DNA from: Aromatoleum toluclasticum ATCC 700605 | GTDB lineage: Bacteria; Pseudomonadota; Gammaproteobacteria; Burkholderiales; Rhodocyclaceae | DNA length: 64,000 nucleotides | Reading direction: 5' to 3' | Assembly: GCF_000378245.1 (NCBI RefSeq) | Contig: NZ_KB899495.1 | Span: 153,113 to 217,112 of the forward strand | In this document: one piece after another, positions 358 to 53,053 of the stretch | Position numbering within the stretch: the first letter of the stretch is position 1 | How the letters are laid out: every line of letters starts with the position of its first letter | Notes under the pieces: model-generated | The model's database searches: none | The model's input: the letters and a program-made list of their open reading frames with translations, nothing else | What the model was told of the DNA's origin: nothing | Program-made: the position numbers and the translations under genes

Positions 358-822
358 TCAGCTTTCCGTTTCGGGTTCCGGCCAGTCGTTGATGTAGCGT
401 TTGAGCAGCCGGTTCTCGAAACTGCATTCGGTGTAGGCGGCCTTGGCGACGTCCTGCAGCGAGATCACGCCGAGCAGGTGCTCGTCCCCGATCACGGCCA
501 GGTGGCTGATGTGGTTCGCGGTCATCACCCGCCGCACGCAGTCGATCGAATCGTCGGGGCTGCCGAGGATGGGGTTGCCGTTCATGATCTCGCCGACCGG
601 CTGGCCGAGCGCGCCGGCCCCCCGCGCGCTCAACGCGACGAGCACCTCGCGCAGCGTCATCAGGCCGTGCAGCTGATCGTCCTGCAGCACGACCAGCGAC
701 CCGACATCGTGTTGCACCATGAGCTTGAGGGCATCCAGCAGCAGGGTATCCGGGGGAACGCCGTGGATTTGCGAACCGCCCGCCCTGTCGCCCTTGATCT
801 GGAGTATGTCGCGTAACAGCAT
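358..822 (-). CDS. CBS-domain pair protein
   Basis: A 154-residue soluble protein consisting of two CBS motifs: the first around residues 8-65 (PDTLLLDALKLMVQHDVGSL, then LHGLMTLREVL) and the second around 75-135 (GNPILGSPDDSIDCVRRVMT, then HLLGVISLQDVAKAAY). CBS pairs bind adenine nucleotides or S-adenosylmethionine and regulate partner proteins or act alone as energy sensors. The start has a strong AAGGGGGAAACC leader. It is the last gene of the 6212-358 operon, 18 bases after the beta-oxidation fusion protein, so a regulatory role toward that operon is possible but unproven. No membrane segment or catalytic domain is fused to it. Confidence 0.8.
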   Translation of the reverse strand: MLLRDILQIKGDRAGGSQIHGVPPDTLLLDALKLMVQHDVGSLVVLQDDQLHGLMTLREVLVALSARGAGALGQPVGEIMNGNPILGSPDDSIDCVRRVMTANHISHLAVIGDEHLLGVISLQDVAKAAYTECSFENRLLKRYINDWPEPETES

Positions 823-4264: not shown

Positions 4265-5260
4265 TTACTTGCGGAATTCGGGCAGGACCTTGTTCGAGAA
4301 CAGTTCGAGCTGCACCGGCGGGACGGTGATCGAGTGCACGCCGAGCTGCTCGAAGCGCTTCAGCTCGGTGACCACCATGTCGGGCGTGCCGCACAGCAGG
4401 CTGTCGACGAAGGCGACATAGGCGGGATGGTCGAAGGGCGGGTTGAACAGCGGTTCGCCCTTGTCGTCCATGAGGTAGCCGTAGCAGCGGATGTGCTCGT
4501 TGTAATACACCTCGAGGAACCAGTCGCGGGCGTCGCGCGCCTCGGCCAGCGTGTCGCCGACGAAGACGTCGCGGAACAGCGCATAACGCAGGCGCTCCGC
4601 GGGGCGGCCCGCCTCGCGGGCGAGACCGAGGTAGATGTCGACGATTTCCTTGGTGCGGTCGTAGTCGGAGTTGGCCAGCCAGTAGTCGAATCCGCCCGCC
4701 GCCGCGCGTTGTGCGCCGACGCGCGAGGTGCCGCCGCAAAACCACATGTCGATGGGGCGCTGCAGGGGCCTCGGCGACAGCTGCTGGTCCTTGTACTCGT
4801 AGTGCTTGCCCTGGAAGCTGAAACGCTCCTGGCTGGTGGCGAGGCGGATGATTTCCATCTGCTCCGACAGGCGTGCACCGCGGGTGTTCTTGGCAGTACC
4901 GATGCCGTCGAATTCCATCGGCCGGTAGCCCATGCCGAGCCCGAGCGTGACCCGCCCACCCGACAGGATGTCGACCGTCGCGGCGGCCTCGGCGGCACGG
5001 ATCGGGTCGTACAGCGGCAGCAGCATGGCGCCGGTGATGAGACGGATCTTCGACGTCGCCGCCGCCGCGGCGCCGAGCGCCTGCAGCGGGAAAGGCAGGA
5101 AGCGGTTGTATTCGAAGTGGTGTTCGGAGGCGACGACGCCGTCGAAGCCGAGGCGCTCGGCCTCGACCGCGGTGGCGACGAGCGTGTCGTAGTTTTGCGG
5201 TACGGCGCCGGGTAAGCCGCGCAGCACGAATTGGCCGGCGAATGAGGTCCAGAATTCCAT
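4265..5260 (-). CDS. LLM-class (luciferase-like) flavin/F420-dependent oxidoreductase
   Basis: A 331-residue bacterial-luciferase-fold TIM barrel. I start it at the ATG giving MEFWTSFAGQFVLRG because an AAGGAAAACGAC leader precedes it; the frame stays open further upstream but into the neighbouring gene. Family features include EAERLGFDGVVASEHHFEYN near the N-terminus, IRLITGAMLLPLYDPIRAAE, and GRVTLGLGMGYRPMEFDGIG in the middle. The family holds FMN-dependent monooxygenases and F420-dependent reductases or dehydrogenases. With F420 synthesis genes in the next operon, an F420 client is reasonable, but FMN use cannot be excluded by eye. It is 22 bases from the next LLM gene and 34 bases before the thiolase. 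Confidence 0.85.
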   Translation of the reverse strand: MEFWTSFAGQFVLRGLPGAVPQNYDTLVATAVEAERLGFDGVVASEHHFEYNRFLPFPLQALGAAAAATSKIRLITGAMLLPLYDPIRAAEAAATVDILSGGRVTLGLGMGYRPMEFDGIGTAKNTRGARLSEQMEIIRLATSQERFSFQGKHYEYKDQQLSPRPLQRPIDMWFCGGTSRVGAQRAAAGGFDYWLANSDYDRTKEIVDIYLGLAREAGRPAERLRYALFRDVFVGDTLAEARDARDWFLEVYYNEHIRCYGYLMDDKGEPLFNPPFDHPAYVAFVDSLLCGTPDMVVTELKRFEQLGVHSITVPPVQLELFSNKVLPEFRK

Positions 5261-5282
5261 GTCGTTTTCCTTGCGATCTTTT

Positions 5283-6212
5283 TCAGGCCTGCAGTCTTGT
5301 CTGGACCTCGTTCGCAAAACGCTCGAGGTCGTTCGGGGCGGCATCGCGGTAACGCCACACGAAGTGGCCGATGCGGGTCGCGGCCGCGGCGGCGCGGATG
5401 GCGCAGGTGATGTCGTGGGCGGAGCCGCCGAAGGTGTGCGCGTCGGAGGCGCCGTCGATGGCGACGTTGCGCTCGAGGACGGCTTCGACCTCGTAGCTGT
5501 GGCGCCCGCAGCCGTCGGCGATCGCGCGGTAACGCGCGAGGCGCTCGATCGCCTCGGCCGTCGTCAGGTTGACGCCCGCATAGGGGGAGACGCCGTTGCG
5601 CGCCGCCCATTCGAGCGTTTCGTCGTCGTCGATCGCGACATACACGGGCAGGTGGGTGCTGACGGGCTTGGGCGTCAGCGCGAGGAAGTCGGCGGTCGTG
5701 CGGGTGGCGCCCCATTCCCACTGCGGCAGGTATTCGCCCGTCCACGCGGGGTAGCTCAGGCCGGCCGGCGCGTCGTCGGGGGTGTGCGTCGGAAAGCGCA
5801 CGTACTTGCCGCGGTAGCGCACCTCGTTAGTGGCCCAGGCGCCGCGGATGAACTCGATGGTTTCGTGCACCATCAGCGGATCGACCTTCTGCCGGCTGGC
5901 CGGCGCGTACGCGACCCCGCCGCGGCCATGCGAGAACTGGTCGAGCAGCGTGATCTCCTCGGCCAGACGCACCGGAAACTCGCCCGCCACGCTGCGTGCC
6001 AGGGCGCGGCAGTGAATGCTCTTGGTGCGGCGCGCGGCAAAGGTCATGAATACGGCGGGCTGGGCGCAGCCGGCCTGGCCGGTCTTGCCCTCCGCAACCC
6101 ACGCGCTGTCGAAACCCAGCGCATCGCCGCGCTCGATCTCGCCGATGACCCGGTGCCACTGCGTCGCGGCCGGCTCATCACCGCCCAGATCCCAGCTCAA
6201 GCCTACCTTCAT
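5283..6212 (-). CDS. LLM-class flavin/F420-dependent oxidoreductase, first gene of operon
   Basis: A 309-residue luciferase-fold protein with a GAGGTCAT leader before its ATG. It begins MKVGLSWDLGGDEPAATQWH and shows the usual barrel segments EIERGDALGFDSAWVAEGK, EEITLLDQFSHGRGGVAYA and a long C-terminal helical part. It is only distantly similar to the neighbouring LLM at 4265-5260, so the two are not a recent tandem duplication and may form different enzymes or a heteromer. The class uses FMN or F420; context favours F420. As first gene of the 6212-358 operon it stands directly behind operator 6256-6274. Confidence 0.85.
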   Translation of the reverse strand: MKVGLSWDLGGDEPAATQWHRVIGEIERGDALGFDSAWVAEGKTGQAGCAQPAVFMTFAARRTKSIHCRALARSVAGEFPVRLAEEITLLDQFSHGRGGVAYAPASRQKVDPLMVHETIEFIRGAWATNEVRYRGKYVRFPTHTPDDAPAGLSYPAWTGEYLPQWEWGATRTTADFLALTPKPVSTHLPVYVAIDDDETLEWAARNGVSPYAGVNLTTAEAIERLARYRAIADGCGRHSYEVEAVLERNVAIDGASDAHTFGGSAHDITCAIRAAAAATRIGHFVWRYRDAAPNDLERFANEVQTRLQA

Positions 6213-6274: not shown

Positions 6275-6335
6275 TTTCTGAGAGATTAACACAACCGCCC
6301 GGGCTGTAAAGCCTTTCCCCGCGGCAAGCGCAGGC

Positions 6336-7103
6336 TCACGCGAACAGGTCTTCGGCGCGCGGGCGGATCAGCGAGGCCGAACCAGCCGTCGAGGGCCGCA
6401 GCTGCGCGCCGCGCACATGGACGACCGGGATCGCCTCGGCCGCCTGCCCCATCACGAACGACGCGGCCGCGGCGAGCTCGTCGGCCACCGCGACCTTGGT
6501 GATCTGCAGCGCCCTTCCGAAAAGGTCGGACTCGCCGATCATGTCGACCACCGGCTCGAAACCGGCCGTGCCGATTGCGAAGCCGGCGGTGCCGTCGCGC
6601 CACGGCCGGCCGGCGGAGTCGTTGATGATGATGCACAGCTCGGCACCGGTGGCCTCGCGCAGGCGTGCGCGCAGCTGCGCCGCGCTGCGGTCGGGATCGA
6701 CCGGCAGCAGGAGCACGCGCGGGCGTTGCGGGTCGCTGCGGATGTTGGACTGGTCGATGCCGGCGTTGGCATGGACGTAACCGCGGCGGTGACGCACGAT
6801 GACCGCGCCGCGCCGGTGGCGCATGACCTCGACCGATTCCCGCAGCATCAGCTCGACGATGCGCGGGTCCTTGTCCGCCTGCTCCGCCAGGGCCTGCGCC
6901 TCGGCCGACGGCTCGATGTCGTCGAGGTAGGCGTAGCGGTTTTCCGCTTTCGACACCACCTTCTGCGCCAGCACCAGCAGGTCGCCGTCGGCGGGTACGA
7001 TCTGCGCGCGCGCGAGCGCATCGAGAATCATCGGCACCAGATCGTCGCCGGGTTCGACCAGCGGGAAACCGGGCAGTCCCGTCAGCTCCATGCGCGCGCT
7101 CAT
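6336..7103 (-). CDS. cofE: Coenzyme F420-0:L-glutamate ligase
   Basis: A 255-residue protein matching CofE (equal to the N-terminal half of mycobacterial FbiB). It adds L-glutamates to F420-0 using GTP. Recognisable segments are GDLLVLAQKVVSKAENR, RHRRGYVHANAGIDQSN and INDSAGRPWRDGTAGFAIG, which contain metal- and GTP-binding residues conserved in this family. It lacks the C-terminal FMN domain that in FbiB reduces dehydro-F420-0. The start has GGAGCGTAGATC before ATG. It is the last gene of the F420 set, 3 bases after npdG, and the last gene of the 18168-6336 operon. The identification rests on several family-specific motifs plus an unbroken set of F420 neighbours. Confidence 0.93.
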   Translation of the reverse strand: MSARMELTGLPGFPLVEPGDDLVPMILDALARAQIVPADGDLLVLAQKVVSKAENRYAYLDDIEPSAEAQALAEQADKDPRIVELMLRESVEVMRHRRGAVIVRHRRGYVHANAGIDQSNIRSDPQRPRVLLLPVDPDRSAAQLRARLREATGAELCIIINDSAGRPWRDGTAGFAIGTAGFEPVVDMIGESDLFGRALQITKVAVADELAAAASFVMGQAAEAIPVVHVRGAQLRPSTAGSASLIRPRAEDLFA

Positions 7104-7106
7104 GAT

Positions 7107-7793
7107 CTACGCTCCCGCTGCGGCGATGCCGGTGAGGCGAATCCCGGCATGACAGCCATACTGCTTGTTGATGAAGATCAGCGCCGAGGTCAGCGCCTCG
7201 ACCGCCGCCGCATTGGCGATGCTGCCGGCGTGGAAGCCGCGCAGGCCCGCCGCCTCGACGAGGCCGATCACCGTCTGGCGCGCCTCCTTGCTGTCGCCGC
7301 ACACCAGCACGTCGCAGTCGAAACCGTGGCCGTCCTTGAGGTGCTCGGCGGCGACGTTCTGGAAGGCGCTGACGACGCGCACCGACTCGCCGAGCAGGTT
7401 CTGCGCGATCTGCCCGGCCGAGCCTTCCGGCGGCAGCTGCACGCGCGCAACCTTGGGCGGCACCAGCGGCACGGTGACGTCGATGAGGATCTTGCCGGCG
7501 AGGGCGTCGCGGATCGATTCGAGCGTCGCACGCTGGTGGGCGAACGGCACCGTCAGCGCCACGACGTCGGCCTCGCGTGCGGCGGTCGGGTTGTCGGCCG
7601 CATGCACGCTCACGGCCTTGCGGCCGCGTTCGGCCATCACGGCGCGCAGCGCGGCGACCGCTTCTTCGGCCTTGTCCGCCGTGCGCGAGCCGATGATGAC
7701 GTTGTAGCCGGCCTGCGCCCAGCGCCGCGCGAGGCCGGTGCCGAGGTCGCCGGTGCCGCCGATGATCGCGATGGTGGGGAGCTTGTCGGTCAT
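7107..7793 (-). CDS. npdG: NADPH:F420 oxidoreductase
   Basis: A 228-residue Rossmann-fold protein of the Fno/NpdG family, which transfers hydride between NADPH and F420. The N-terminus IAIIGGTGDLGTGLARRW is the dinucleotide-binding loop, followed by NVIIGSRTADKAEEAV, where the SR pair is the usual NADP phosphate contact, and the family segment VDVTVPLVPPKV-like in the middle. It gives the pathway a way to make F420H2 from NADPH; no F420-dependent glucose-6-phosphate dehydrogenase is seen. It sits between fbiC and cofE with a good AGGAGAACCTGC leader, so reductant supply is co-expressed with cofactor synthesis. Confidence 0.92.
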   Translation of the reverse strand: MTDKLPTIAIIGGTGDLGTGLARRWAQAGYNVIIGSRTADKAEEAVAALRAVMAERGRKAVSVHAADNPTAAREADVVALTVPFAHQRATLESIRDALAGKILIDVTVPLVPPKVARVQLPPEGSAGQIAQNLLGESVRVVSAFQNVAAEHLKDGHGFDCDVLVCGDSKEARQTVIGLVEAAGLRGFHAGSIANAAAVEALTSALIFINKQYGCHAGIRLTGIAAAGA

Positions 7794-7860
7794 GCAGGTT
7801 CTCCTGGAATGTCCCGCGCCATGCGCGGGGGATGGGATGGGTTGCAGCGGGTCGTCCGCG

Positions 7861-10320
7861 TCATACGCCGGCAGCGGCGCGCTCGGCGCCCTGTGCCAGC
7901 ACCGGACGCACGACTTTGCGCGGCGGCGTGTTGACGATCTGCGCCAGCGGTGCCGCGGCGAACGAGGCCGCCCGCCGCTCCTCGGCCACGGCGCCGTAAG
8001 CGGTGCTGCGCTGGCGCGGCTCGCGCCCGGCGCTGCGGATCAGGCGCTCCATCTCGGCCGGGGGCTTCTCCTGGCCGTGCTGCGCGCCGGCGGCACGGGT
8101 GATCATCTCGTTCATCAGCGTGCCGCCGAGGTCGTTGGCGCCCGCCGCCAGCGCCACGAGCGCGCCGGCGTCGCCCATCTTCACCCACGAGGTCTGGATG
8201 TTGTCGATGAGGCCGTTGAGCACGAGGCGGGCGACGCTGTGCATCAGCACCGCTTCGCGGAAGGTCGGCCCCTTGCGTGCGCGCCCCTTCAGGTACATGG
8301 GCGCCTGTTCGCCGACGAAGGGCAGCGGCACGAACTCGGTGAAGCCGCCCGTCTGGCGCTGCAGCTCGCGCAGGCGGACGAGATGGCGCGCCCAGTGCAC
8401 GATGCGATCGACATGACCGAACATGATCGTCGAAGTCGTCCTGAGGCCGACGCGGTGCGCGCTGCCGACCACTTCCAGCCACTCGTCGGTGCGCAGCTTG
8501 TCGGGACAGATGACCGCCCGCACCTCGTCGTCGAGCATTTCGGCCGCGGTGCCGGGCAGGGTGTTGAGCCCGGCATCGCGCAGCCGGCGCAGGAAGGTCT
8601 CCACCGGCATGTCGAGCGTACGCGCGCCCTGCGCCACTTCCAGCGGCGAGAAGGCATGCACGTGGATGTTCGGCGCCACGGCGCGGATCGTCGCGAGCAG
8701 GTCGAGGTACTTCTGCCCGGTGTACGCGGGGTGGATGCCGCCCTGCAGGCACACTTCGGTGCCGCCGCGCTCCCACGCCTCGCGCACACGCCGCGCCACC
8801 TCGTCGTGTTCGAGGTCGTAGGGCGCGCCGGCGAGCTTCTCGTTGTGCTTGCCCTTGGAGAAGGCGCAGAACTGGCAGTTGAAATAACAGATGTTGGTGT
8901 AGCTGATGTTGCGATTGACCACGTAGCTGACCGCCTCGCCGCAGCGGTGCCGGCGCAGCTGGTCGGCCGCCTGGCAGACGTAGGCGAACTCCGGGCCGCG
9001 CGCCTGGAACAGGCGCACGATCTCGGCCTCGTCGAGGGCGGCGCCGGCACTGGCGCGCGCGACGATGTCCATCACCTCGGGCGCCACGTCGCCGTCGGCG
9101 ATGGGGGCCTGCGGCGCGGCCGCGGCCTCGGCGGGCAGCGCGCCGCCCTTGCCCGGCAGCCAGTCGTCGAGGCGCGGATAGCCCTCGGCATCGACCATCC
9201 GCAGCACGACCTTGTGCACCGTCGGCGCCAGCCACGTCGCGCCGTCGACGACGTACGACGGATACACCGTGAGGCGCTCGTGCAGGTACTTGCCTGCGGC
9301 GGCGGTCTGGCTTCGCAGCTGTTCCACATGCGGCCACGGCGCCTCGGGATTGACGAAATCCGGCGTCAGCGGCGACACGCCGCCCCAGTCGTTGATGCCG
9401 GCCGCGACCAGATGCGGCAGCTCGCCCGGGCTCAGATTGGGCGGCGCCTGGATGCTCATGTCGGGGCCGAGGACGAGGCGCGCGACGGCGATGGTCCACA
9501 GCATGTCGTCGAGATCCGGCTCGGGCGCGTCGGCCATCTTGGTGCCGGGCTTGGCGCGGAAATTCTGGATGATGATTTCCTGCAGATGGCCATATTGCGC
9601 ATGCAGGTCGCGCAGCGCGAGCAGCGATTCGATGCGCTCGGTGCGCGATTCGCCGATGCCGATCAGGATCCCCGAGGTGAAGGGCACGCGCGCCTCGCCG
9701 GCGAGGCGGATGGTTTCGAGCCGGCGCTCCGGCGCCTTGTCGGGCGATCCGAAGTGCGGTTTGCCCCGCTCGCCCAGCGCTCCCGCGGAGGATTCGAGCA
9801 TCAGGCCCATCGATGCGGAGACCGGACGCAGCACCTCGATGTCGGCCTGCGTCAGGTTGCCCGCGTTGATGTGCGGCAGCACGCCGGTTTCCTCGAGGAC
9901 GCGGCCGGCGACATGCGCGAGATAGTCGATGGTCGACCCGAAGCCGAGCCACGCCAGCGCGTCGCGCGCCTCCTGCCAGCGCTGTTCGGGCTTCTCGCCG
10001 AGCGTGAAGAGCGCCTCCTTGCAGCCCAGCGCGGCCGCCTCGCGCACCGTCGCGAGCACCGATTCGACCGGGAGATAGGCGCGTCCGACGCTCTTCGGCG
10101 TGCCCGCGAAGGCGCAGTAGTGGCACACGTCGCGGCACAGCTGCGTGAGCGGGATGAACACCTTGCGCGACCACGTGACGAGGTTGCGGAAGCCGCGGTC
10201 GCGCACCTGGCGCGCCTCGGCCATCAGGCGTGCGGTATCGGTCTGGGTCGCGAGCGCGAGGGCTTCGGCCCGCGTGGGCAGGCGCCGCTGGGCGAGAAAG
10301 GGCATCTCAATGCGTGACAT
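7861..10320 (-). CDS. fbiC: FO synthase (fused CofG-CofH, radical SAM)
   Basis: An 819-residue fusion that builds the deazaflavin ring FO from tyrosine and 5-amino-6-ribitylaminouracil. Two radical-SAM CxxxCxxC motifs are visible: Cys62, Cys66 and Cys69 in CRDVCHYCAF (CofG half, near the N-terminus) and CYFNCQFCAF near residue 478 (CofH half). This is the actinobacterial FbiC order, whereas many archaea have two separate genes. I start at the ATG of MSRIEMPFLAQR because AGGAA precedes it; an ATG 15 bases upstream lacks a leader. The start overlaps the cofC stop by 14 bases, indicating translational coupling. In a proteobacterium this fusion points to horizontal acquisition of F420 synthesis at some time, though base use here does not differ visibly from its neighbours. 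Confidence 0.95.
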   Translation of the reverse strand: MSRIEMPFLAQRRLPTRAEALALATQTDTARLMAEARQVRDRGFRNLVTWSRKVFIPLTQLCRDVCHYCAFAGTPKSVGRAYLPVESVLATVREAAALGCKEALFTLGEKPEQRWQEARDALAWLGFGSTIDYLAHVAGRVLEETGVLPHINAGNLTQADIEVLRPVSASMGLMLESSAGALGERGKPHFGSPDKAPERRLETIRLAGEARVPFTSGILIGIGESRTERIESLLALRDLHAQYGHLQEIIIQNFRAKPGTKMADAPEPDLDDMLWTIAVARLVLGPDMSIQAPPNLSPGELPHLVAAGINDWGGVSPLTPDFVNPEAPWPHVEQLRSQTAAAGKYLHERLTVYPSYVVDGATWLAPTVHKVVLRMVDAEGYPRLDDWLPGKGGALPAEAAAAPQAPIADGDVAPEVMDIVARASAGAALDEAEIVRLFQARGPEFAYVCQAADQLRRHRCGEAVSYVVNRNISYTNICYFNCQFCAFSKGKHNEKLAGAPYDLEHDEVARRVREAWERGGTEVCLQGGIHPAYTGQKYLDLLATIRAVAPNIHVHAFSPLEVAQGARTLDMPVETFLRRLRDAGLNTLPGTAAEMLDDEVRAVICPDKLRTDEWLEVVGSAHRVGLRTTSTIMFGHVDRIVHWARHLVRLRELQRQTGGFTEFVPLPFVGEQAPMYLKGRARKGPTFREAVLMHSVARLVLNGLIDNIQTSWVKMGDAGALVALAAGANDLGGTLMNEMITRAAGAQHGQEKPPAEMERLIRSAGREPRQRSTAYGAVAEERRAASFAAAPLAQIVNTPPRKVVRPVLAQGAERAAAGV

Positions 10321-11056
10321 TTTCCTGGTCTCCATGGGGTCGGGGGGTACGCTTGCGCCGGTCGCCGTCTCCCGGACAAGCCGGGAGCGCGTGCAGGCGC
10401 CGCGCGATTCTTATGTGTTCGAGATAATTCTGGACGTGCGTGACGGGCTCGGCGCCGGTGCGGGCGACGAGTTCGGCGAGATCCTGCGGCCAGTCGACGT
10501 CGAAGGCGACGCCCGGCAGTTCCACCACGCGCAGGGTCGCCTCCAGCGCCACCGCCTGGCGGACGTGATGGACGAAGCTGTTGCGCCCGTACGCGAAGGT
10601 GAATTCGCGCGCCGGCGAGCAGATCATGCAGTTGGTGCCTTCGCGATGACGGTCCGGTGCGATGGTCACCGCCGGCCGCGACTGCGGCTCGTGGGCCAGC
10701 GCGAGGCGGGTGATTTCCGCCGCCGACAGCAGCGGAATGTCGGCATGCAGCACCAGCACGTCGTCGATGCCGGCGCGGGCGAGCGTGGCGACGGCGGCCT
10801 GCACCGTGCCGTTCAGCCCGCGCGCGCCGAGCGCCGATTCGGGCAGCCAGTCGGCGTGAAAGCGATCGACGAGGGGGCGCGCGCCCGGATCCCCCGCCAC
10901 GACGACGGTCCCCGCCAGACAAGGGTGGTGCGCCAGCACCGCGAGCACGTCGGCGAGCATCGCCTTGACCAGTTCCTCGCGCTCGCGCGGGGACAGGATC
11001 CGGGCGAGGCGCTGCTTGGCGCGCGAAAACTGCTTCACCGGAATCAGGGCATGCAT
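10307..11056 (-). CDS. cofC: Phospholactate/phosphoenolpyruvate/phosphoglycerate guanylyltransferase
   Basis: A 249-residue nucleotidyltransferase of the CofC/FbiD family, which joins GMP to a three-carbon phosphoacid to give the activated donor used by CofD. The N-terminal [18 protein letters not shown] has the glycosyltransferase-A-like nucleotide loop with the family KxxxxAKxRL pattern; VLVLHADIPLLSAAEI carries the metal-binding Asp-x-Pro motif. Its start overlaps the end of cofD by 13 bases and its stop overlaps the start of fbiC by 14 bases. Which acid it uses (2-phospholactate, PEP or 3-phosphoglycerate) is not decided by what I can see, and matters because no dehydro-F420 reductase domain is present in the window. 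Confidence 0.9.
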   Translation of the reverse strand: MHALIPVKQFSRAKQRLARILSPREREELVKAMLADVLAVLAHHPCLAGTVVVAGDPGARPLVDRFHADWLPESALGARGLNGTVQAAVATLARAGIDDVLVLHADIPLLSAAEITRLALAHEPQSRPAVTIAPDRHREGTNCMICSPAREFTFAYGRNSFVHHVRQAVALEATLRVVELPGVAFDVDWPQDLAELVARTGAEPVTHVQNYLEHIRIARRLHALPACPGDGDRRKRTPRPHGDQENVTH

Positions 11057-12018
11057 GGCGCCTCCTCCTCCTCGCGCAGCGCGCGCGCAAAGGCCAGCAC
11101 CCGGCGCGCCAGGCCGACCTTGTCCTGGCGGTTGCGCATCAGCGTCGGCACCACCAGCACCTTGATGCCGAGTGCGCGGATGGCCGGCGCCTGGGCGACG
11201 TCGGCATCGTCGATGACGAAGCCGTCGATCAGCTCGCCGTAGTGGGCCGCCACCGCCTCGGCGGTCTGCGGCAGGTTCAGCTCCTGCATCATCTTCGCCG
11301 CAGGCCCCTTCACCGCCGCCCCGGCGATGATCGGCGACACGGCGATCACCGGGGCGGCGCTGGCGCGCAGCGCGGCCTCTACTCCCGGCAGGCGCAACAT
11401 CGGGGCGACGCTGACGAAGGGATTCGAGGGGCAGATCACCGTCGCCCCGAGCGTAGGCGAGCGCAGGCTTTCGACAAGCTGCGGATGCGGGCGCGCCGCG
11501 TCGATGCCGTCGAAGCGGAAGCCGGCGACGCGCGGCTCGCAGCGGCGCCGCACGAAGTAGTCCTGGAACGGCAACTCGCCCGCTTCGGTCTGCACCATCG
11601 TACGCACCGGATCGTCGCTCATCGGCAGCAAGGTGTGCGCCACGCCCAGCGCGCGGCACAGCCGGCGGGTGACCTGCGACAGCGACTCGCCCGCGCGCAG
11701 GCGCTGGCTGCGCACCAGGTGGGTGGCGATGTCGCGGTCGCCGAGGCGGAACCACGTCTCGGCCCCGTAGCGCCCGAGCGCGTCCATGGCCGCCCAGCTT
11801 TCCCCGGCGAGGCCCCAGCCCTGCTCGGCGTTGCCGATGCCGGCCAGCGTGTACATGACGGTATCGAGGTCGGGGGAAATGCTCAGGCCGAGGTGGTCGA
11901 AGTCGTCCCCGGTGTTGGCGACGATCGTCAGCTCGCCGGGGCGCAGCTCGTCGGCGAGGCCCAGCGCCAGCTTCGCGCCGCCGACCCCGCCCGAAAGTGC
12001 CAGGATTTCCCGTTTCAT
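11044..12018 (-). CDS. cofD: 2-phospho-L-lactate transferase (F420-0 synthesis)
   Basis: A 324-residue protein of the CofD/FbiA family, which transfers the phosphoacid part from its GDP-activated form onto FO. Conserved segments are [18 protein letters not shown] at the N-terminus, [20 protein letters not shown] near residues 35-54 (metal and FO pocket) and [16 protein letters not shown] in the middle. I choose the ATG of [11 protein letters not shown], with GGGAG at 8 bases, over an ATG 21 bases upstream with a weak leader. It follows the acyl-CoA dehydrogenase at 12045 by only 26 bases, so the F420 genes are fused into the catabolic operon rather than having their own promoter. Confidence 0.93.
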
Positions 12019-12044
12019 CGCCTCGCTCCCGTCGCTCATGCCCG

Positions 12045-13160
12045 TCAGGCGTAGCAGTGCGCCATGTGGCGCGCCACCGTTTCGCGGTGCCAGCCCGCAT
12101 CGCCGGCGGTCACGGCGTTGGCCCGCGCGCGCCGCAGATGCAGATGCACGTCCAGTTCCCACGTGTAGCCGATGCCGCCGTGCAGTTGCACCGCCGCCTC
12201 GGCCGCGTCGACCGCGGTCTCGCCGATGAAGGCCTTGGCCGCCGCCACCAGCGCGCCGGCATCGCCGCGCCGTTCGTCGAGCGCGAGGCAGGCGGCGTAC
12301 AGCAGGCTGCGGCCGATCTCGACGTTCACCTGCACGTCGGCGAGGCGGTGGCTGACGGCCTGGAAGCTTCCGATCGCGCGGCCGAACTGCACGCGCTCCT
12401 TCGCGTAGGCGGTCGTCATCGCCAGGGCGGCCCCGGCGCTGCCGAGCAGGTCCGCTGCGACGAGCGCCGTCCATACTGCGTAGGCGTCGTGCGCCGCGCC
12501 GGCGTCCGGCACCATGCGCTGCGCCTCGACCCGCACGCCGTCGAAGCGCAGCTCGACGATGTCCTGCGCGTCGATGCGCTGCATCGGCACCGCTTCCACG
12601 CCGGCCGCGCCGGCTTCGACCGGCAGCAGCCGGACTTCGTCGCCGACCCGCGCGGCGACGAGGAACAGGCCTGCCGTGCTGCCGTCGGCGACGAAGATCT
12701 TGCTGCCCGACAGCCGCAGGCCACCGTCACCGGCCTGCGCCGCCATGACGACGGCATCCGGCCCCCAGGTGCCGTTGGGCTCTTCCACCGCGAGGGTCAC
12801 GGGCAAGCTGCCGGCGATGATCCGCGGCAGCAGTTCGGCCTTCAGCGCCGCGCCGCCGCTGCGGTCGAGCGCGATCGCGCCGGCCAGCGTCGACGTCATC
12901 GCGCCCGGCAGCAGCGCGCGCCCGGCCTCTTCCGCCAGCAGCGCGGCGCCGATCACGCCCAGACCGCTGCCGCCGCCGGCCTCGCTGCAGCCGGCACCGA
13001 ACCAGCCCATCTCCGCCAGCTCGGCCCACAACTGCGCCGGCATCCGCGACGGCGGCGTGTCGAGCGCGCGGCGCGCGGACTCGGCCTTCCAGCGCTGCGC
13101 GAGCAGGTCGCGGGCGATGTCGCGCAGCGCAACCAGTTCTTCGCCAAGTTCGAAATCCAT
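12045..13160 (-). CDS. Acyl-CoA dehydrogenase family subunit (second of a pair)
   Basis: A 371-residue acyl-CoA dehydrogenase fold protein starting [20 protein letters not shown] (an extra ATG one codon upstream is also possible; GGGGAGG precedes both). It shows the N-terminal helical domain, a middle beta domain ([20 protein letters not shown]) that lacks the usual TEPxAGSD flavin-binding sequence, and the C-terminal helices with [20 protein letters not shown] and [20 protein letters not shown]. The stop of its neighbour overlaps its start. Adjacent unequal acyl-CoA dehydrogenase genes are typical of the heterotetrameric FadE pairs of actinobacterial sterol side-chain oxidation; here it would be the partner with a degenerate middle domain. 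The substrate is unknown. Confidence 0.88.
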
Positions 13161-14326
13161 CATGCCTCCCCGGTCGAACGCGGCAGGCCGAGCACGCGCT
13201 CGGCGATGACGTTGTGCATGATTTCGCTGGTGCCGCCGCCGATGCTGTAGCCGAGCGAATCGAAGTAGCCGGCCACGAGCCGCCCCTTGCCGACGACGTG
13301 GGGCGATTTCTTGGTCAGGCAGGCGTAAGGGCCGGCGTTGTCGAGCGCCGCGCGGGCGACCTTCTGCCGCAGCTTCGCGGCGAACAGCTTGCCCACCGAG
13401 GCCGAGGCCCCCGGCTGGCGCCCGGCGAGCTGGTCGCTCAGCGCGCGCAAGCCGAGGTAGCGCAGGCCTTCGAGTTCGATCCAGTACTGCGCCGCCTGCT
13501 GCCGCGCCACGGCGTCGGCGATCTCGCCGCCCGCCGCCGCTTGCCGCCACAGCCGTTCGAGGCTGCCTTCCAGCGAGATGACGCCGGACAGGCCGCTGCG
13601 CTCGTGGTCGAGCGTGCTGCGCGCGATCTTCCAGCCGCCATGCAGCTCGCCGACGAGCTGCTCGCGCGGGATGCGCACGGCATCGAAGAACACCTCGGAG
13701 AAATGCACGCCGCCGCCGGCGTTGCGCAGCGGGCGCACGCTGATGCCCGGCGTATCCATGCGGCAGAGCAGATAGCTGATGCCTTCGCGCTGGGGTGCCG
13801 ACGGATCGGTGCGCACCAGCAGGAAGCACCAGTCGGCGATCGGCCCGAGGCTGGTCCACAACTTCTGCCCGGTAACGACGAAGTCGTCGCCTTCGAGCAC
13901 CGCGCGCGTCGTCAGCGAGGCCAGATCGCTGCCCGCGCCGGGTTCGCTGAAGCCCTGGCACCACAGCTCCTCGCCGGACAGGATGCGCGGCAGGAAGCGG
14001 CGGCGCTGCGCCTCGGTGCCGTGCCGCACCAGCGTCGGACCGAGGATCGACAGGCCGATGGTGTTGATCAGCGGCGGCAATTTGGCGCGGGCCATCTCTT
14101 CCGACACGATCACCTGTTGCGTCAGCGTCGCGTCCTGCCCGCCGTAGGCCTTCGGCCACGCCAGGCCGACGTAGCCGGCCTCCCACAGACGCCGTTGCCA
14201 GTCGCGCGCGGCTTGCACCGGATCGGCCGCCTTCGCCACCGCGGCCGCGTGATGGGCGTTGGCGGCGATCCATTCGCGGCAGCGCAGCCGGTAGGCTTCC
14301 TCGGCGGCAGTGAACTTGAGGTCCAT
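13160..14326 (-). CDS. Acyl-CoA dehydrogenase (first of a pair)
   Basis: A 388-residue acyl-CoA dehydrogenase. The middle domain has the FAD/substrate segment CQGFSEPGAGSDLASLTT; a helix-G segment STLDHERSGLSG carries a glutamate at the place used as base by isovaleryl-CoA dehydrogenase, while the C-terminal IGGGTSEIMHNVIAERVLGL has Gly where medium-chain enzymes have their Glu base. It introduces a double bond alpha-beta to the CoA thioester and passes electrons to ETF. The stop codon overlaps the next acyl-CoA dehydrogenase start (TGATG), supporting an obligate alpha-beta complex. It lies between LLM oxidoreductases and the F420 genes in the same operon. Confidence 0.92.
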   Translation of the reverse strand: MDLKFTAAEEAYRLRCREWIAANAHHAAAVAKAADPVQAARDWQRRLWEAGYVGLAWPKAYGGQDATLTQQVIVSEEMARAKLPPLINTIGLSILGPTLVRHGTEAQRRRFLPRILSGEELWCQGFSEPGAGSDLASLTTRAVLEGDDFVVTGQKLWTSLGPIADWCFLLVRTDPSAPQREGISYLLCRMDTPGISVRPLRNAGGGVHFSEVFFDAVRIPREQLVGELHGGWKIARSTLDHERSGLSGVISLEGSLERLWRQAAAGGEIADAVARQQAAQYWIELEGLRYLGLRALSDQLAGRQPGASASVGKLFAAKLRQKVARAALDNAGPYACLTKKSPHVVGKGRLVAGYFDSLGYSIGGGTSEIMHNVIAERVLGLPRSTGEA

Positions 14327-14329
14327 GGC

Positions 14330-15406
14330 TCAGGCGACGAGGCGGGTATGGAGTTGCGACGCCGCGACGCGGATGCTGTCGAGCACGTCCACATGCGCGC
14401 GCCCCGGCAGGTACATGCGGCACAGCAGGTGGTTGATGCCCACATCGCCCTTCAGGCGCAGCAGCCGCCCCAGCACCTCGTCGTGGCTGCCGTACAGCGC
14501 GCAGCCGGCCAACAGGGCCTCGTCGCTCATGCCGCGGATGACGGCGAGATCCTTCTGGTCCTCGCGCCCCTCGGCGCGCAGCGCGTCGATGCGCGCGCGC
14601 AGGCCCGGCAGCGCCTTTTCGCGGGCGACCTTGCCGTCGGCGGCGAGGAACAGCTCGCGCGCCAGCGCCACCTCGACCTCGCAGCGGTCGCGGCCGGCCT
14701 TCGCCAGCGCCGCGTCGTACCAGCCGACCTTGGCCCTGACCTCGTCCTCGGTTTCCAGCGACGACACCAGCAGGCTGTAGCCGCGCGACGCGGCCCACTC
14801 GATCATGGCGCGCGACGTGGCATTGACCCACAGCGGCGGATGCGGCAGCTGGATCGGGCGCGGCAGCAGGGGCAGGTATTCCGCCTCGGTCTGCCCGCGC
14901 CGCCACTGGTCGACGAACTTCCGCTCGCCGGGCTCGCGACGCCAGCCGCGCTCGCCTTTCGCGTGCAGCGGGAACACGTAGTGTTCGCCGATGTACTGCA
15001 CGTTGCTTTGCGACCATACGGCGCGCACCAGATCGACGGCCTCGCGCAGGCACGCCTCGCGCTGCTCCCACGGCACGCCCGCGGCGGCGAATTCGCCGGC
15101 GCGTTCGCCGGCCGACACGCCCATGATCAGGCGCCCGCGCGACACGATGTCGACCAGCGCGTAGTCCTCGGCGCTATTCACCGGGAAATCCAGCGCCAGC
15201 TGGCGATTGGCCGGGCCGACGCGGATCGAGCGGGTGGCGGCCGCGGCTGCGGCGGCGAGCGGCGCGACTTCCGGCGTGCCGAGCGCGCCGTGGTGTTCCT
15301 CGAACAGCGCCGCGTCGAAGCCCAGGCGGTCGGCCTCGGCGATCTGCGCCAGCGCGTCGTGGTAGGAGCACTGCGGCCCCAGCGAATACAACAGACCCAG
15401 TCTCAT
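14330..15406 (-). CDS. LLM-class flavin/F420-dependent oxidoreductase
   Basis: A 358-residue luciferase-fold enzyme starting MRLGLLYSLGPQCSYHDALA with a GGGCGGAA leader. Segments EADRLGFDAALFEEHHGALG, LALDFPVNSAEDYALVDIVS and RGRLIMGVSAGERAGEF fit the family; the C-terminal part contains GSHDEVLGRLLRLKGDVGIN. It resembles flavin monooxygenase-type LLM proteins more than the short F420 reductases, so either an F420 or an FMN role is possible. Its start overlaps the stop of the upstream LLM by the ATGA sequence, and the acyl-CoA dehydrogenase follows after 3 bases. The tight packing indicates co-translation of two LLM proteins, possibly as a complex. Confidence 0.85.
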   Translation of the reverse strand: MRLGLLYSLGPQCSYHDALAQIAEADRLGFDAALFEEHHGALGTPEVAPLAAAAAAATRSIRVGPANRQLALDFPVNSAEDYALVDIVSRGRLIMGVSAGERAGEFAAAGVPWEQREACLREAVDLVRAVWSQSNVQYIGEHYVFPLHAKGERGWRREPGERKFVDQWRRGQTEAEYLPLLPRPIQLPHPPLWVNATSRAMIEWAASRGYSLLVSSLETEDEVRAKVGWYDAALAKAGRDRCEVEVALARELFLAADGKVAREKALPGLRARIDALRAEGREDQKDLAVIRGMSDEALLAGCALYGSHDEVLGRLLRLKGDVGINHLLCRMYLPGRAHVDVLDSIRVAASQLHTRLVA

Positions 15407-16446
15407 TTCCGCCCCCCCTCGCGCAGCATCGGCATCACTTCCTTGGCAAACAGCTCCATCGACTCCAGCATCCGGTCATTGCGGAAATTGGCCCAGCTCA
15501 GGCGCGCCAGCAGCATGTCGACGCCGTAATCGACGACCGGGCGGAACATCTCGCGCACCCGCGCCGGACCGCCGCGCGGCCGGTTCGGATTGGTGATGAA
15601 CTGCTCCTTCATGCCCGGCGGCGGCTCGGTGACCTGCGAGCCGTCTTCGTTGAACATGCGGAAGAAGCCGAAGCCGATGAACTGGTCGCGCATCGCCGGC
15701 CAGTAGTCCTGCTCGATCGTCACGGCGGCCTCCTCGTCGCTCGCGGCGAGATAGACGTCGACGAACTTGGCCCGCTTCAGGCTGGCCGGGTCGCGGCCGA
15801 ACTCGCGCGCGAACTCGGCGTAGCGGTCGAACACCGTCATGCCGCACTCGGCGTCGCCGGTGGTGCAGTACGGCCAGCCGCGCTTGGCCGCCGCCTTGAC
15901 CGACCAGTCGGCGAAGCCGCCGCACACCCACATCGGCACCTCGCGCTGGACGGGGCGCGTCTTGAGCGAGACGTCCTTGTAGTTGTAGTACTCGCCGCTG
16001 AAGGAGAAGGTCTCCTCGGTCAGCGCGCGGCGCACCACCTCGAAAGCCTCGATGAAGCGCGCACCGATGCGGCCGATCTCGACGCCGTGGCCGTGGAACT
16101 CTTCCGGCCGATAACCGGCGCCGAGGCCCAGCACCAGACGGCCGTTGGAAATGCGGTCGAGCACCGCCGCCTGCTCGGCGACCTTGAGCGGATCGTGCTG
16201 CGGCACCAGCAGCGCGCCGGTGACGAGCTTGATGCGGCTGGTCGCGAGCGCGACCGGCGCGAACGCGGTCAGCAGCGACGGACAGTAGCCGTCATACCAG
16301 AACGAGTGCTCGGTGAGCGCGAAGCCGTCGTAGCCGAGCTCCTCGGCGCGCCGCGCATGCACCACCAGGTCGTCGTACATGTCGGCGTGCGAACGCCGGT
16401 ACGAATGGGGACTCTGCATCCCGTACGGTCCGATCACGATATCCAT
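15403..16446 (-). CDS. LLM-class flavin/F420-dependent oxidoreductase
   Basis: A 347-residue luciferase-fold protein. I start it at the ATG of MDIVIGPYGMQSPHSYRRSH, 11 bases after GAGGAGG; an in-frame GTG three codons upstream is closer to that leader and is the alternative. Family segments are RRAEELGYDGFALTEHSFWY, IKLVTGALLVPQHDPLKVAE and NGRLVLGLGAGYRPEEFHGHG; the last parallels the 4265-5260 protein, and the two share the mid-protein PMWVCGG / DMWFCGG turn, so they are clear paralogues. It is placed second in the operon, behind the acyl-CoA ligase, and is translationally coupled to the next LLM. F420 use is inferred from context. Confidence 0.86.
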   Translation of the reverse strand: MDIVIGPYGMQSPHSYRRSHADMYDDLVVHARRAEELGYDGFALTEHSFWYDGYCPSLLTAFAPVALATSRIKLVTGALLVPQHDPLKVAEQAAVLDRISNGRLVLGLGAGYRPEEFHGHGVEIGRIGARFIEAFEVVRRALTEETFSFSGEYYNYKDVSLKTRPVQREVPMWVCGGFADWSVKAAAKRGWPYCTTGDAECGMTVFDRYAEFAREFGRDPASLKRAKFVDVYLAASDEEAAVTIEQDYWPAMRDQFIGFGFFRMFNEDGSQVTEPPPGMKEQFITNPNRPRGGPARVREMFRPVVDYGVDMLLARLSWANFRNDRMLESMELFAKEVMPMLREGGRK

Positions 16447-16503
16447 GGATTCCACATCCTCCTCAATGCTGTTCGACTGTCGGGAAACGACGGCCCGCAG
16501 CGG

Positions 16504-18168
16504 TCACTGCCCCGCCCGCACCGTTTCCGCCTGCGCGGCCTTCGCGCGGTTCGCGGCGTCCTGCTGCAATGCCACCTTCTGGATCTTGCCGGTGGGCGTC
16601 ATCGGCATCGCGTCGAGCCTGACGAGCACTTCCGGGTACATGTACTTCATCGCCTTGTGTTGGCCGAAGAAGGCCTCCACCTCGGCCAGCGGAATGTCGC
16701 GGCCATCGCGCGTCACGAGGTAGGCGCACACGCGCTCGCCCAGGCGCTCGTCGGGCATGCCGACCACGGCCGAATCGAGCACGTCCGGGTGCTGGCACAG
16801 CAGGTCCTCGATTTCCTTCGGATACACTTTCGAGCCGCCGCGGTTGATGACCTCTTTCGCCCGCCCGGCAAAACACAGGTAGCCGTCGGCATCGACGAAA
16901 CCGAGGTCGCCGGTGTAGAACCAGCCCTCGTCGTCGCGCGTCTCGGCCGTCTTCTGCGGTTGGTTGTGATAGCCGACGAACAGCGTCGGGCCGCGGAAGC
17001 AGATCTCGCCGACCTCGCCCGCCGCCAGGCGGCGCGAGCGGTCCTTCTGGTCCACGATCTTGAGCTGCGCGCCGAACACCGGCCGGCCGACCGAGTCGCG
17101 CACTTTCTCGTCGGGGTCGTCGGGCGAGGTGCGCGTATGCACGATCGTCTCACCCATGCCGTAGGTGTTGGCCGACTTGACGCCCCAGGTGCGCTGCAGC
17201 TCGGCGATCAGCTCGGGCGAGCTGCGCGCGCCGCCGACCGCCACCGACTTGATGCACGAGGTGTCGTGCTTGGCGAAATCGGGGTGGCGCAGGATGCCGT
17301 ACAGGTGGGCCGGCGTTCCCGACAGCATCGTCACGCGCGCCCGCTCGATCATCCCCAGCAGCTCGCCCGGGCTGTAGCGGTCGAGCACCACCATCGGGAA
17401 GCCGCCGAACACGCAGTAGTAGGTCGTGAAATGGCCGAAGCTGTGCGTCATCGGCGAACAGGCCAGCATCACCGTGTCGGCCGCCATGTAGCCGGTCAAC
17501 TGGCGGATCAGCGACATGATGGTGTTGTGGGTGTGCAGGAAGCCTTTGGGGTTGCCCTCGGTGCCGGACGTGAAGTTCAGATAGAACACGTCGTCGGCGC
17601 GCGGCGCGAGGCCCTCGAGGCGCTGCAGGTTGCCGCGCCCCTCCTCGATCAGCGCCGCGAGTGCGCATTCGTCCGCGCCCTTCGGCTCGCCGCGCGCGAC
17701 GATGAAGTGGCGCAGCCCCGGCAGTTGCGGGCGCACCCCGCGGATCATGTCGGCATAGCCGAAATCCTTGAAGGAATCGGCCACGATCACCGCATCGGTG
17801 CCGCAGAACTGGAACAGGTTGGTGATTTCGCGCTCGCGGAACACCGTGTGCGTCGGCTGGATCACCGCGCCGATGCGCGACAGCGCGATCTGCAGGAAGC
17901 AGAACTCCACCCAGTTCGGCAGCTGCACCGCGACGATGTCGCCCGGCCCGATGCCGATCCCCAGGAGGCCCGCGGCGAGCGCGTCCGATTCGGCCTTGAA
18001 CTCGGCGAAGGTGTAGCTGCGCGTCGTCGTGATCAGCGCGGTGCGGTCGGGGCAGCGGGCGACCGTGTCGTCCAGGCCCTGATGCAGGGTGTAGTCGGTC
18101 CACAGGCCGGCATCGCGCCAGGTCTTGCCGTAGGTTTCGGAAAAGCGGGGAAATTGATGTCGAGTCAT
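16504..18168 (-). CDS. Acyl-CoA synthetase / class I adenylate-forming ligase
   Basis: A 554-residue ANL-family ligase that activates a carboxylic acid to its CoA thioester through an acyl-AMP. The phosphate-binding loop is FTSGTEGNPKGFLHTH, the hinge is YTGDLGFVDADGYLCFAGRAK, and the catalytic lysine is in the C-terminal GKIQKVALQ. I place the start at MTRHQFPRFSETYGK because the frame upstream runs through operator DNA and lacks family features; the leader there is weak. Similarity in style to cyclohexanecarboxylate- and short-chain-type ligases is seen, but the acid cannot be named. As first gene of the 18168-6336 operon it would commit the substrate to CoA-bound degradation together with the acyl-CoA dehydrogenases downstream. 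Confidence 0.92.
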   Translation of the reverse strand: MTRHQFPRFSETYGKTWRDAGLWTDYTLHQGLDDTVARCPDRTALITTTRSYTFAEFKAESDALAAGLLGIGIGPGDIVAVQLPNWVEFCFLQIALSRIGAVIQPTHTVFREREITNLFQFCGTDAVIVADSFKDFGYADMIRGVRPQLPGLRHFIVARGEPKGADECALAALIEEGRGNLQRLEGLAPRADDVFYLNFTSGTEGNPKGFLHTHNTIMSLIRQLTGYMAADTVMLACSPMTHSFGHFTTYYCVFGGFPMVVLDRYSPGELLGMIERARVTMLSGTPAHLYGILRHPDFAKHDTSCIKSVAVGGARSSPELIAELQRTWGVKSANTYGMGETIVHTRTSPDDPDEKVRDSVGRPVFGAQLKIVDQKDRSRRLAAGEVGEICFRGPTLFVGYHNQPQKTAETRDDEGWFYTGDLGFVDADGYLCFAGRAKEVINRGGSKVYPKEIEDLLCQHPDVLDSAVVGMPDERLGERVCAYLVTRDGRDIPLAEVEAFFGQHKAMKYMYPEVLVRLDAMPMTPTGKIQKVALQQDAANRAKAAQAETVRAGQ

Positions 18169-18312
18169 GTCCGTCGAAAGCTTCCGTTGATGGTCACAAA
18201 CGGGTCGCACATCCGGACAGACCGCTGCGTACCCGGTCACGGACATCCCTGCCACAGGCAGGAAGCTGCATCCGTTCCGGGGGGTCTCCTGTCCCGGTGA
18301 CCCGTCCTTAAA

Positions 18313-18342: not shown

Positions 18343-18370
18343 ATCATATCACACGGTTTACCGTTGTAAA
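18343..18370 (-). promoter_or_regulatory. Predicted sigma-70 promoter of the ligase/F420 operon
   Basis: On the minus strand TTTACA (18365-18370) and TATGAT (18343-18348) are separated by 16 bases and differ from the consensus at one position each. The -35 element falls in a small inverted repeat GTTTACCGTTGTAAAC. The long leader (about 165 bases) and the operator just downstream fit repression. Confidence 0.5.
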
Positions 18371-18385
18371 CGGCTGCACCGCAAA

Positions 18386-52970: not shown

Positions 52971-53053
52971 GCTTGCTCCTCGTTCCTGTTGGTGTCGTCG
53001 GGCCGCCCTGCCAGGGCGTCTTCCGGCGTGTGTCATACCTGCATACCTGGCGC

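What the first reader, a model, noticed from the sequence alone, without database searches (positions are those of the whole stretch)
6336..18168. Complete coenzyme F420 gene set built into a catabolic operon of a proteobacterium
cofD, cofC, fbiC, npdG and cofE follow, with overlaps or very small gaps, the acyl-CoA ligase, two LLM oxidoreductases and two acyl-CoA dehydrogenases. cofD begins only 26 bases after an acyl-CoA dehydrogenase. F420 is known mainly from archaea and actinobacteria, with sporadic proteobacterial occurrence. Here cofactor synthesis appears to be switched on together with the pathway that needs it (operator at 18313), instead of being constitutive. This suggests an F420-dependent degradation pathway in a Gram-negative organism.
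Basis: partly seen in the sequence, partly recalled or inferred. Interest (0 to 1): 0.85.

Follow-up and report, generated by a model that had tools for sequence, protein, structure and literature searches.

The report
Catabolic operon carrying its own cofactor genes
A soil and water bacterium carries all the genes for a rare redox helper molecule, F420, inside the same operon as the enzymes that probably use it to break down a ring-shaped acid, so cofactor and pathway could be switched on together.

Summary
Four F420 synthesis genes (cofD, cofC, fbiC, cofE) and npdG pass NCBI's curated cut-offs and lie between ACAD2 and LLM3 in one codirectional run; the 26-base gap before cofD is exact. The host is an Aromatoleum. 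The order is kept in A. tolulyticum and Azoarcus sp. Aa7. Acidimicrobiia carry the same catabolic genes together without F420 genes, and trees put the window's FbiC and CofD with Proteobacteria, so the F420 block probably joined a mobile catabolic operon inside Proteobacteria. F420 use is supported by co-occurrence: all 5 genomes with an LLM1 relative have CofD, against 14 of 369 overall. In A. tolulyticum this operon holds the only CofD and FbiC over cut-off. Cof genes listed among steroid genes of a betaproteobacterium are already in print, in a figure legend.

The parts
18356..18371 (-). perfect palindrome GTTTACAACGGTAAAC, candidate operator overlapping the -35 region
   Evidence: only match in the window with up to 2 mismatches (mean 0.19 in shuffles, 17 of 100 shuffles had one or more) and only exact match in the 5.92-Mb genome; identical in 2 of 2 other species carrying the operon
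18343..18370 (-). promoter-like site TTTACA-16-TATGAT with TG before the second hexamer
   Evidence: only promoter-like site found in 4000-19100; 0.7 expected in shuffles, so suggestive only
16504..18168 (-). acyl-CoA ligase (ACL)
   Evidence: AMP-ligase families; best NF004758 394.5 bits and cyclohexanecarboxylate-CoA ligase 380.5 bits; none of the 25 models shown is over cut-off
15403..16446 (-). LLM1, luciferase-like oxidoreductase
   Evidence: TIGR03619 145 bits, below cut-off 166.9; AlphaFold model pLDDT 86
14330..15406 (-). LLM2, luciferase-like oxidoreductase; paired with LLM1
   Evidence: TIGR03619 102 bits, below cut-off; LLM1 is followed by LLM2 in 18 of 22 LLM1 loci
13160..14326 (-). 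ACAD1, acyl-CoA dehydrogenase subunit
   Evidence: PimC-like 239.9 bits, below cut-off
12045..13160 (-). ACAD2, acyl-CoA dehydrogenase subunit, PimD- or IpdE2-like
   Evidence: 142.6 bits, below cut-off
11044..12018 (-). cofD, 2-phospho-L-lactate transferase
   Evidence: TIGR01819 298 bits, over cut-off
10307..11053 (-). cofC, guanylyltransferase; Gly-x-x-Ser motif predicts 2-PL/PEP rather than 3-PG
   Evidence: TIGR03552 153 bits, over cut-off; alignment to 6bwg and 7p97; residue rule from PMC8764529
7861..10320 (-). fbiC, FO synthase (CofG and CofH domains)
   Evidence: NF006687 1117.5 bits, over cut-off; two CX3CX2C motifs seen in the translation
7107..7793 (-). npdG, NADPH:F420 reductase
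   Evidence: TIGR01915 213 bits, over cut-off
6336..7103 (-). cofE, F420-0:L-glutamate ligase, without an FbiB C-terminal domain
   Evidence: TIGR01916 262 bits, over cut-off; the bifunctional model NF009810 matches only its positions 11-242 of 449
5283..6212 (-). LLM3, divergent luciferase-like protein
   Evidence: below all cut-offs, best 51.7 bits; 50-52% identical in Halieaceae and Acidimicrobiia
4265..5272 (-). LLM4, luciferase-like oxidoreductase
   Evidence: TIGR03619 153.9 bits, below cut-off 166.9
3025..4230 (-). acetyl-CoA C-acetyltransferase (thiolase)
   Evidence: NF006090 624.8 bits, over cut-off
841..2997 (-). FadJ-like enoyl-CoA hydratase / 3-hydroxyacyl-CoA dehydrogenase
   Evidence: NF008363 548.7 bits, below cut-off
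358..822 (-). CBS-domain protein, last gene of the run seen in the window
   Evidence: partial CBS-type matches; 18-base gap
19887..20822 (-). amidohydrolase, member of the cross-phylum backbone
   Evidence: PF04909; 75-76% identical in Acidimicrobiia and Halieaceae
53054..55045 (-). OYE/BaiCD-like flavin reductase, member of the backbone
   Evidence: PF00724; 61-64% identical in Acidimicrobiia and Halieaceae
51759..53117 (-). FAS1-like dehydratase (MaoC-type, recalled), member of the backbone
   Evidence: PF13452; 57-61% identical in Halieaceae and Acidimicrobiia
48601..49344 (-). TetR-family regulator, candidate for the operator
   Evidence: PF00440; two 32-33% identical regulators adjoin ACL-ACAD1-ACAD2 in Halieaceae L135; about 30 kb from the operator, no direct link shown

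Best explanation
The run ACL-LLM1-LLM2-ACAD1-ACAD2-cofD-cofC-fbiC-npdG-cofE-LLM3-LLM4-thiolase-FadJ is one transcription unit that makes both a catabolic pathway and its redox cofactor. Steps: (1) ACL activates a hydrophobic, probably alicyclic or steroid-like, carboxylic acid with CoA (inferred). (2) The ACAD1/ACAD2 pair, probably a heteromer, desaturates it (inferred from PimC/PimD likeness). (3) FbiC, CofC, CofD and CofE make F420 from 2-phospho-lactate or PEP (enzymes shown by profile; product inferred). (4) NpdG exchanges electrons between NADPH and F420 (family shown; direction inferred). (5) One or both LLM pairs use F420 to move a hydride on a CoA-bound or released ring intermediate (inferred from co-occurrence and linkage). 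(6) The amidohydrolase, OYE reductase, dehydratase, thiolase and FadJ-like protein open the ring and finish beta-oxidation (inferred). A local repressor, perhaps the TetR protein at 48601-49344, binds the palindrome at 18356-18371 and releases pathway and cofactor together (inferred). The catabolic backbone crossed phyla; the F420 block was added to it in a proteobacterial lineage (inferred from gene order and trees).
For: Curated profiles. Tight spacing and no promoter-like site found from 4000 up to the ACL start. The ten backbone genes lie together in Acidimicrobiia L059 and L060, and in L061 with an extra SDR and LLM3 not called apart; no F420 gene matched in these loci. Backbone proteins are about as close to Acidimicrobiia as to Halieaceae (10 genes, differences of -4 to +7 points), while CofD, FbiC and CofE are 11, 7 and 15 points closer to Halieaceae. 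Trees of FbiC (34 rows) and CofD (32 rows) put the window with Gammaproteobacteria and Halieaceae, apart from the genus's other F420 lineages and from Acidimicrobiia. LLM1 relatives at E<=1e-40 occur in 5 of 369 genomes of the class, all 5 among the 14 with CofD over cut-off (Fisher P 3.6e-8, or 9.5e-7 without the own genome). Of 19 genomes holding LLM1 relatives, 18 have CofD and 16 FbiC/CofG over cut-off. 5 of 6 LLM-family matches of the own genome lie within 3.6 kb of F420 genes. A. tolulyticum's only CofD and FbiC over cut-off are in this operon. NCBIfam showed no flavin reductase among the genes of the run.
Confidence: 0.68

Rival explanations
1. The LLM proteins are FMNH2-dependent monooxygenases of luciferase or type II Baeyer-Villiger kind. 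The F420 genes sit in the operon for other enzymes, such as the FDOR or the sixth LLM elsewhere in the genome.
For: Foldseek and VIA-align rank FMN-type luciferases and RslO1 above F420 enzymes for LLM1, and Foldseek does the same for LLM2; RslO1 is described as FMN-dependent (PMC8093152, passages); best PDB sequence hits are alkanal monooxygenases and RslO1; one PF04075 F420 reductase is at C17.
Against: Co-occurrence of the LLM1 family with F420 synthesis; no flavin reductase seen in the run; A. tolulyticum has no PF04075 match yet keeps the operon; the fold is shared by both cofactor classes, so rank is weak evidence.
Confidence: 0.18
2. The F420 block is a mobile passenger that landed in the operon, expressed from its own promoter and supplying F420 to the whole cell; co-induction with the pathway is an illusion.
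For: F420 genes travel on plasmids: CofD matches in 39 records, 17 of them typed conjugative; cofE-LLM3 is the widest gap of the run (123 bases); a second set exists in the own genome.
Against: cofD, cofC and fbiC overlap and no promoter-like site was found before cofD; the junctions are kept in three species; two of four plasmid F420 loci that I opened also adjoin an annotated LLM gene, which passengers would not be expected to do.
Confidence: 0.12

Closest known systems
F420 biosynthesis gene sets of Proteobacteria (Paracoccus, Oligotropha, Paraburkholderia/Mycetohabitans rhizoxinica; PMC8498797, passages and section 23 read)
   Same: F420 made through the FbiC fusion; in Betaproteobacteria only Fno (NpdG) for F420 reduction
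   Different: here embedded in a catabolic operon; CofC has the Gly of 2-PL/PEP enzymes, not the Ser of 3PG-F420 producers
Cholesterol gene cluster of Sterolibacterium denitrificans (Figure 11 legend of PMC6678751, passages read)
   Same: cofC-cofD-cofE listed beside acyl-CoA synthetase 3, a steroid delta-isomerase, an SDR and two acyl-CoA dehydrogenases
   Different: no LLM, FbiC or NpdG in the listed stretch; homology to the window not tested (genome not retrieved)
Picrate degradation by Rhodococcus, Nocardia and Nocardioides
   Same: LLM-type F420H2 reductases used for biodegradation (review passages); an npdG-type F420 reductase in the pathway (recalled)
   Different: actinobacterial; F420 biosynthesis genes not part of that operon as far as I recall
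Sinorhizobium meliloti pSymA and Paraburkholderia sp. PGU19 plasmid F420 loci
   Same: NpdG, CofD, CofC, FbiC near a TIGR03619 LLM and CoA-transferase or NTF2-like genes
   Different: other substrate genes; no ACL-LLM1-LLM2-ACAD1-ACAD2 order annotated in the 15-18 kb seen
Acidimicrobiia LLM/ACAD operon (L059, L060, L061)
   Same: same ten backbone genes (LLM3 not called apart in L061)
   Different: no F420 genes inside; F420 genes elsewhere in those genomes

Membership tests
Complete bacterial F420 biosynthesis set | FbiC (CofG+CofH), CofC, CofD and CofE all present above curated cut-offs | tested here: met
Complete bacterial F420 biosynthesis set | dehydro-F420 reductase (FbiB C-terminal domain), expected if PEP is the CofC substrate | tested here: not met
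   TIGR03553 over cut-off in 0 of 6 genomes incl. own (best own 53.8 vs 249.55 bits; also over cut-off in 0 of 14 control genomes); another reductase or 2-PL use remains possible
3PG-F420 producers | Ser/Thr at the CofC position of Mrhiz S162 | tested here: not met
   Gly in the Gly-x-x-Ser motif (alignment read by eye around a gap); rule from PMC8764529
F420-dependent LLM oxidoreductases (TIGR03619) | score over the curated cut-off | tested here: not met
   LLM1-4: 145, 102, 49 and 154 bits vs 166.9; the LLM of the second F420 locus scores 193
F420-dependent LLM oxidoreductases (as a working class) | occurs only with F420 biosynthesis | tested here: met
   5 of 5 in the class sample; CofD in 18 of 19 LLM1-bearing genomes; the exception, G079, holds a 25%-identical relative
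F420-dependent LLM oxidoreductases (as a working class) | binds and reduces or oxidises F420 | not testable with these tools
   needs protein and cofactor; the fold comparison does not decide
Proteobacterial steroid-degradation clusters | steroid ring-degradation equivalogs over cut-off in the window | tested here: inconclusive
   KstD-like 45050-46831 scores 288 vs 789; BaiCD-like proteins 263 and 314 vs 825; SnoaL and DUF1302/DUF1329/MMPL genes present; not every window gene was scanned against NCBIfam

The most novel reading that the evidence does not exclude
F420 is a substrate-induced, pathway-dedicated cofactor in denitrifying Aromatoleum: the LLM pairs do an oxygen-independent, F420-dependent hydride transfer on a steroid- or terpenoid-like CoA ester. 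Proteobacteria repeatedly gained F420 by building cof genes into such catabolic islands, which would answer why they make this cofactor at all.
Probability: 0.3. Interest if true: 0.85.

Novelty: new variant of a known kind. Interest (0 to 1): 0.62.

Why it matters
A 2021 review lists why Proteobacteria make F420 among the open questions and says that no F420H2-dependent reductase had been studied experimentally in the newly found producers outside Actinobacteria (PMC8498797). This operon turns that into a bench test: A. tolulyticum has its only CofD and FbiC over cut-off inside one catabolic operon, so growth substrate, cofactor level and pathway can be tied together with one deletion and one LC-MS run.

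Tried and rejected
Transfer of the F420 block together with the pathway from Acidimicrobiia: rejected, because FbiC and CofD trees keep Acidimicrobiia outside the proteobacterial group that holds the window (midpoint root, so direction is inferred; rows covering under 80% of the window protein were left out, among them split or partial FbiC frames of L087 and L097).

Descent of the operon's F420 genes from the genus's other sets: rejected; most other Aromatoleum loci form their own clades (FbiC 11 rows, CofD 7 rows, both 100/99), and the EbN1 plasmid set (G005) lies outside both. The best match over 15 such loci is 49-61% identical to the window's protein.

3PG-F420 as product: not supported by the CofC residue. 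FMN versus F420 by fold comparison: no decision (the LLM2 model has mean pLDDT 78 with a weak stretch at 135-185).

Exact substrate: not settled. NCBIfam matches point to alicyclic or steroid-like acids, but those equivalogs are below cut-off. Literature: searches on F420 with Thauera, Betaproteobacteria/fbiC, steroid degradation, LLM/acyl-CoA dehydrogenase clusters, luciferase-like/cycloalkane, Aromatoleum/Azoarcus, degradation gene clusters and Rhodocyclaceae listed no paper that I recognised as treating F420 in Aromatoleum. Lists were capped: 15 of 119 papers were shown, all with 0 F420 mentions, and, 15 of 200, all with 0 mentions of F420 biosynthesis. Passages of PMC9795900 (Aromatoleum sp. 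CIB) have no F420. Only the Sterolibacterium figure legend linked cof genes to catabolism. Warnke et al. 2018 on ACS3 was not held.

Errors of mine: one search used a wrong cofD start (12019), so its 'no match' is void; one search repeats it correctly. One search had cofD and ACL out of frame, ACL with stops; corrected. In some searches several proteins carried 3 to 72 extra bases at the start of the frame.
Full report
What is there. The window is G000:C5:153113-217112 of a 5.92-Mb genome. The nearest named carriers of the same operon are Aromatoleum tolulyticum ATCC 51758 and Azoarcus sp. Aa7; genus members G016 and G004 hold it on contigs of the same lengths, 72,822 and 156,325 bases, so I take G016 and G004 to be these strains and the host to be an Aromatoleum, a betaproteobacterium. 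Of 48 frames that pass a codon-position GC filter, 47 are on the minus strand; the other lies antisense to cofC and fbiC and I dropped it. CofE, NpdG, FbiC, CofC and CofD each exceed the curated cut-off of their equivalog model. They lie between ACAD2 and LLM3 in a run of 15 codirectional genes from ACL (start 18168) to a CBS-domain gene (end 358), with gaps of -14 to 123 bases.

Conservation. 47 of 49 window proteins have a counterpart at 70% identity or more on the A. tolulyticum contig and 49 of 49 on the Aa7 contig, in the same order across the operon and most of the island, mostly at 90-98% identity (only parts of the Aa7 contig were searched; block 57408-61751 is matched at another place, and two proteins were not found in A. 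tolulyticum, whose contig ends there). I infer that the F420 junctions predate the split of these species.

A second F420 set. The own genome has a second CofD and CofE (C12:22-24 kb) and a second NpdG-CofC-FbiC block (C12:148-151 kb), the latter divergent from an ACAD-ACAD-LLM group. Of 61 genomes searched (own plus 60 relatives), CofD is over cut-off in 12 and CofG/FbiC in 14. I count only over-cut-off matches, because weaker ones also ring in controls such as E. coli. G002 has FbiC but no CofD match. A. tolulyticum (G016) has one CofD and one FbiC over cut-off, both in the window-type operon.

Backbone without F420 genes. LLM1 was used to scan genome contigs: 22 loci. In Acidimicrobiia L059 and L060 the order is ACL-LLM3-LLM4-LLM1-LLM2-ACAD1-ACAD2-OYE-amidohydrolase-dehydratase. 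L061 has this order with an SDR added after ACAD2 and LLM3 not called apart; L062 is partial and interrupted. No F420 gene matched in these four loci. A Halieaceae MAG has the same genes in three pieces (L058, L135, L136), some twice, and its F420 genes on an 11-kb contig (L122). Identities, Halieaceae/Acidimicrobiia: ACL 68/63, LLM1 68/61, LLM2 65/59, ACAD1 71/66, ACAD2 54/58, LLM3 50/52, LLM4 59/57, amidohydrolase 76/75, OYE 64/61, dehydratase 57/61; but CofD 59/48, FbiC 62/55, CofE 61/46. CofC had no Acidimicrobiia match of 60% coverage, and NpdG none in either group (the best hit by score is shown, and L060 reaches 67% for LLM1). FbiC's gap is thus no wider than LLM1's; CofD and CofE carry the contrast. 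In trees the window FbiC groups with G018 (99/95), then Halieaceae (94/84) and two Gammaproteobacteria (97/95), and CofD with a gammaproteobacterium (97/89) and Halieaceae (91/81). The other Aromatoleum sets and Acidimicrobiia are separate. I infer that the backbone moved between phyla and the F420 block joined it within Proteobacteria. The root is a midpoint, so direction is not proved.

Regulation. One promoter-like site was found in 4000-19100, upstream of ACL, overlapped by the palindrome GTTTACAACGGTAAAC, which occurs once in the genome and is identical in the two other species. One promoter-like site is about what shuffles give (0.7), so position and conservation carry the argument, and the whole intergenic stretch is well conserved. 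Four terminator-like sites were found, fewer than in shuffles (6.7); the one on the minus strand lies inside ACL. Positions below 4000 were not scanned. A TetR gene lies in the island, and related TetR genes adjoin ACL-ACAD1-ACAD2 in Halieaceae. Inducibility is a prediction.

Cofactor form. CofC has Gly where 3PG-type enzymes have Ser, so 2-PL or PEP is predicted. An FbiB C-terminal reductase is over cut-off in 0 of 6 genomes, so the reduction of dehydro-F420, if made, is unexplained.

Substrate. Profiles hint at an alicyclic or steroid-like acid: cyclohexanecarboxylate ligase and dehydrogenase, KstD-like and BaiCD-like proteins, SnoaL folds, DUF1302/DUF1329/MMPL genes. None of those NCBIfam equivalogs passes its cut-off. 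Azoarcus sp. Aa7 degrades bile acids with and without oxygen (PMC8399759, passages read; 0 occurrences of F420). The own genome's C12 CofD and CofE lie within about 7 kb of a lipid-transfer protein/thiolase over cut-off and a sub-cut-off HsaD-like hydrolase. Sterolibacterium denitrificans has cofC-cofD-cofE in its cholesterol gene list (PMC6678751 figure legend).

Wider pattern. Of 76 plasmid records with FbiC matches, which also include actinobacteria and haloarchaea, I opened four: S. meliloti pSymA and Paraburkholderia sp. PGU19 have F420 genes near an annotated LLM gene; the A. aromaticum EbN1 plasmid set adjoins a PNPOx-family and a crotonase gene, no LLM in the stretch; a Sphingobium plasmid has fbiC near CoA genes, with no other cof gene in the stretch.

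Verdict. Real, conserved and testable. The embedded F420 set is a new arrangement of known parts rather than a new kind of system.

Noticed in passing
window 57408-61751 and L033:6128-10476 (about C5:139.4-143.8 kb): A four-gene block (APH-family, acyl-CoA dehydrogenase, one not scanned, thiolase) is present twice in the genome at 88-94% protein identity, on either side of the F420 operon.
   Followed up: no
G002:C1:1684.6-1686.6 kb (L049): A one-contig Aromatoleum genome has FbiC over cut-off beside CofC and a split NpdG match but no CofD match: possibly an FO-only maker or a decaying set.
   Followed up: partly
window 27783-29144 and 28961-30229: Two adjacent genes of the Rv3169 family, both over cut-off, in the catabolic island.
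   Followed up: no
window 18437-18991, 23278-23694, 27057-27644, 31726-32220: Four separate SnoaL-like proteins in one island.
   Followed up: no
window 20851-21873: Open frame without a Pfam match and only 75% identical between species while its neighbours are 95-96%: the frame may be wrong or the gene fast-evolving.
   Followed up: no
G005:C3 (same length as A. aromaticum EbN1 plasmid 2, L157): A third F420 lineage of the genus sits on a conjugative plasmid among several insertion sequences.
   Followed up: partly
L058:5361-6797: Upstream of the Halieaceae LLM genes lies a protein that looks like a carotenoid oxygenase (judged by eye, from recall; sequence start).
   Followed up: no
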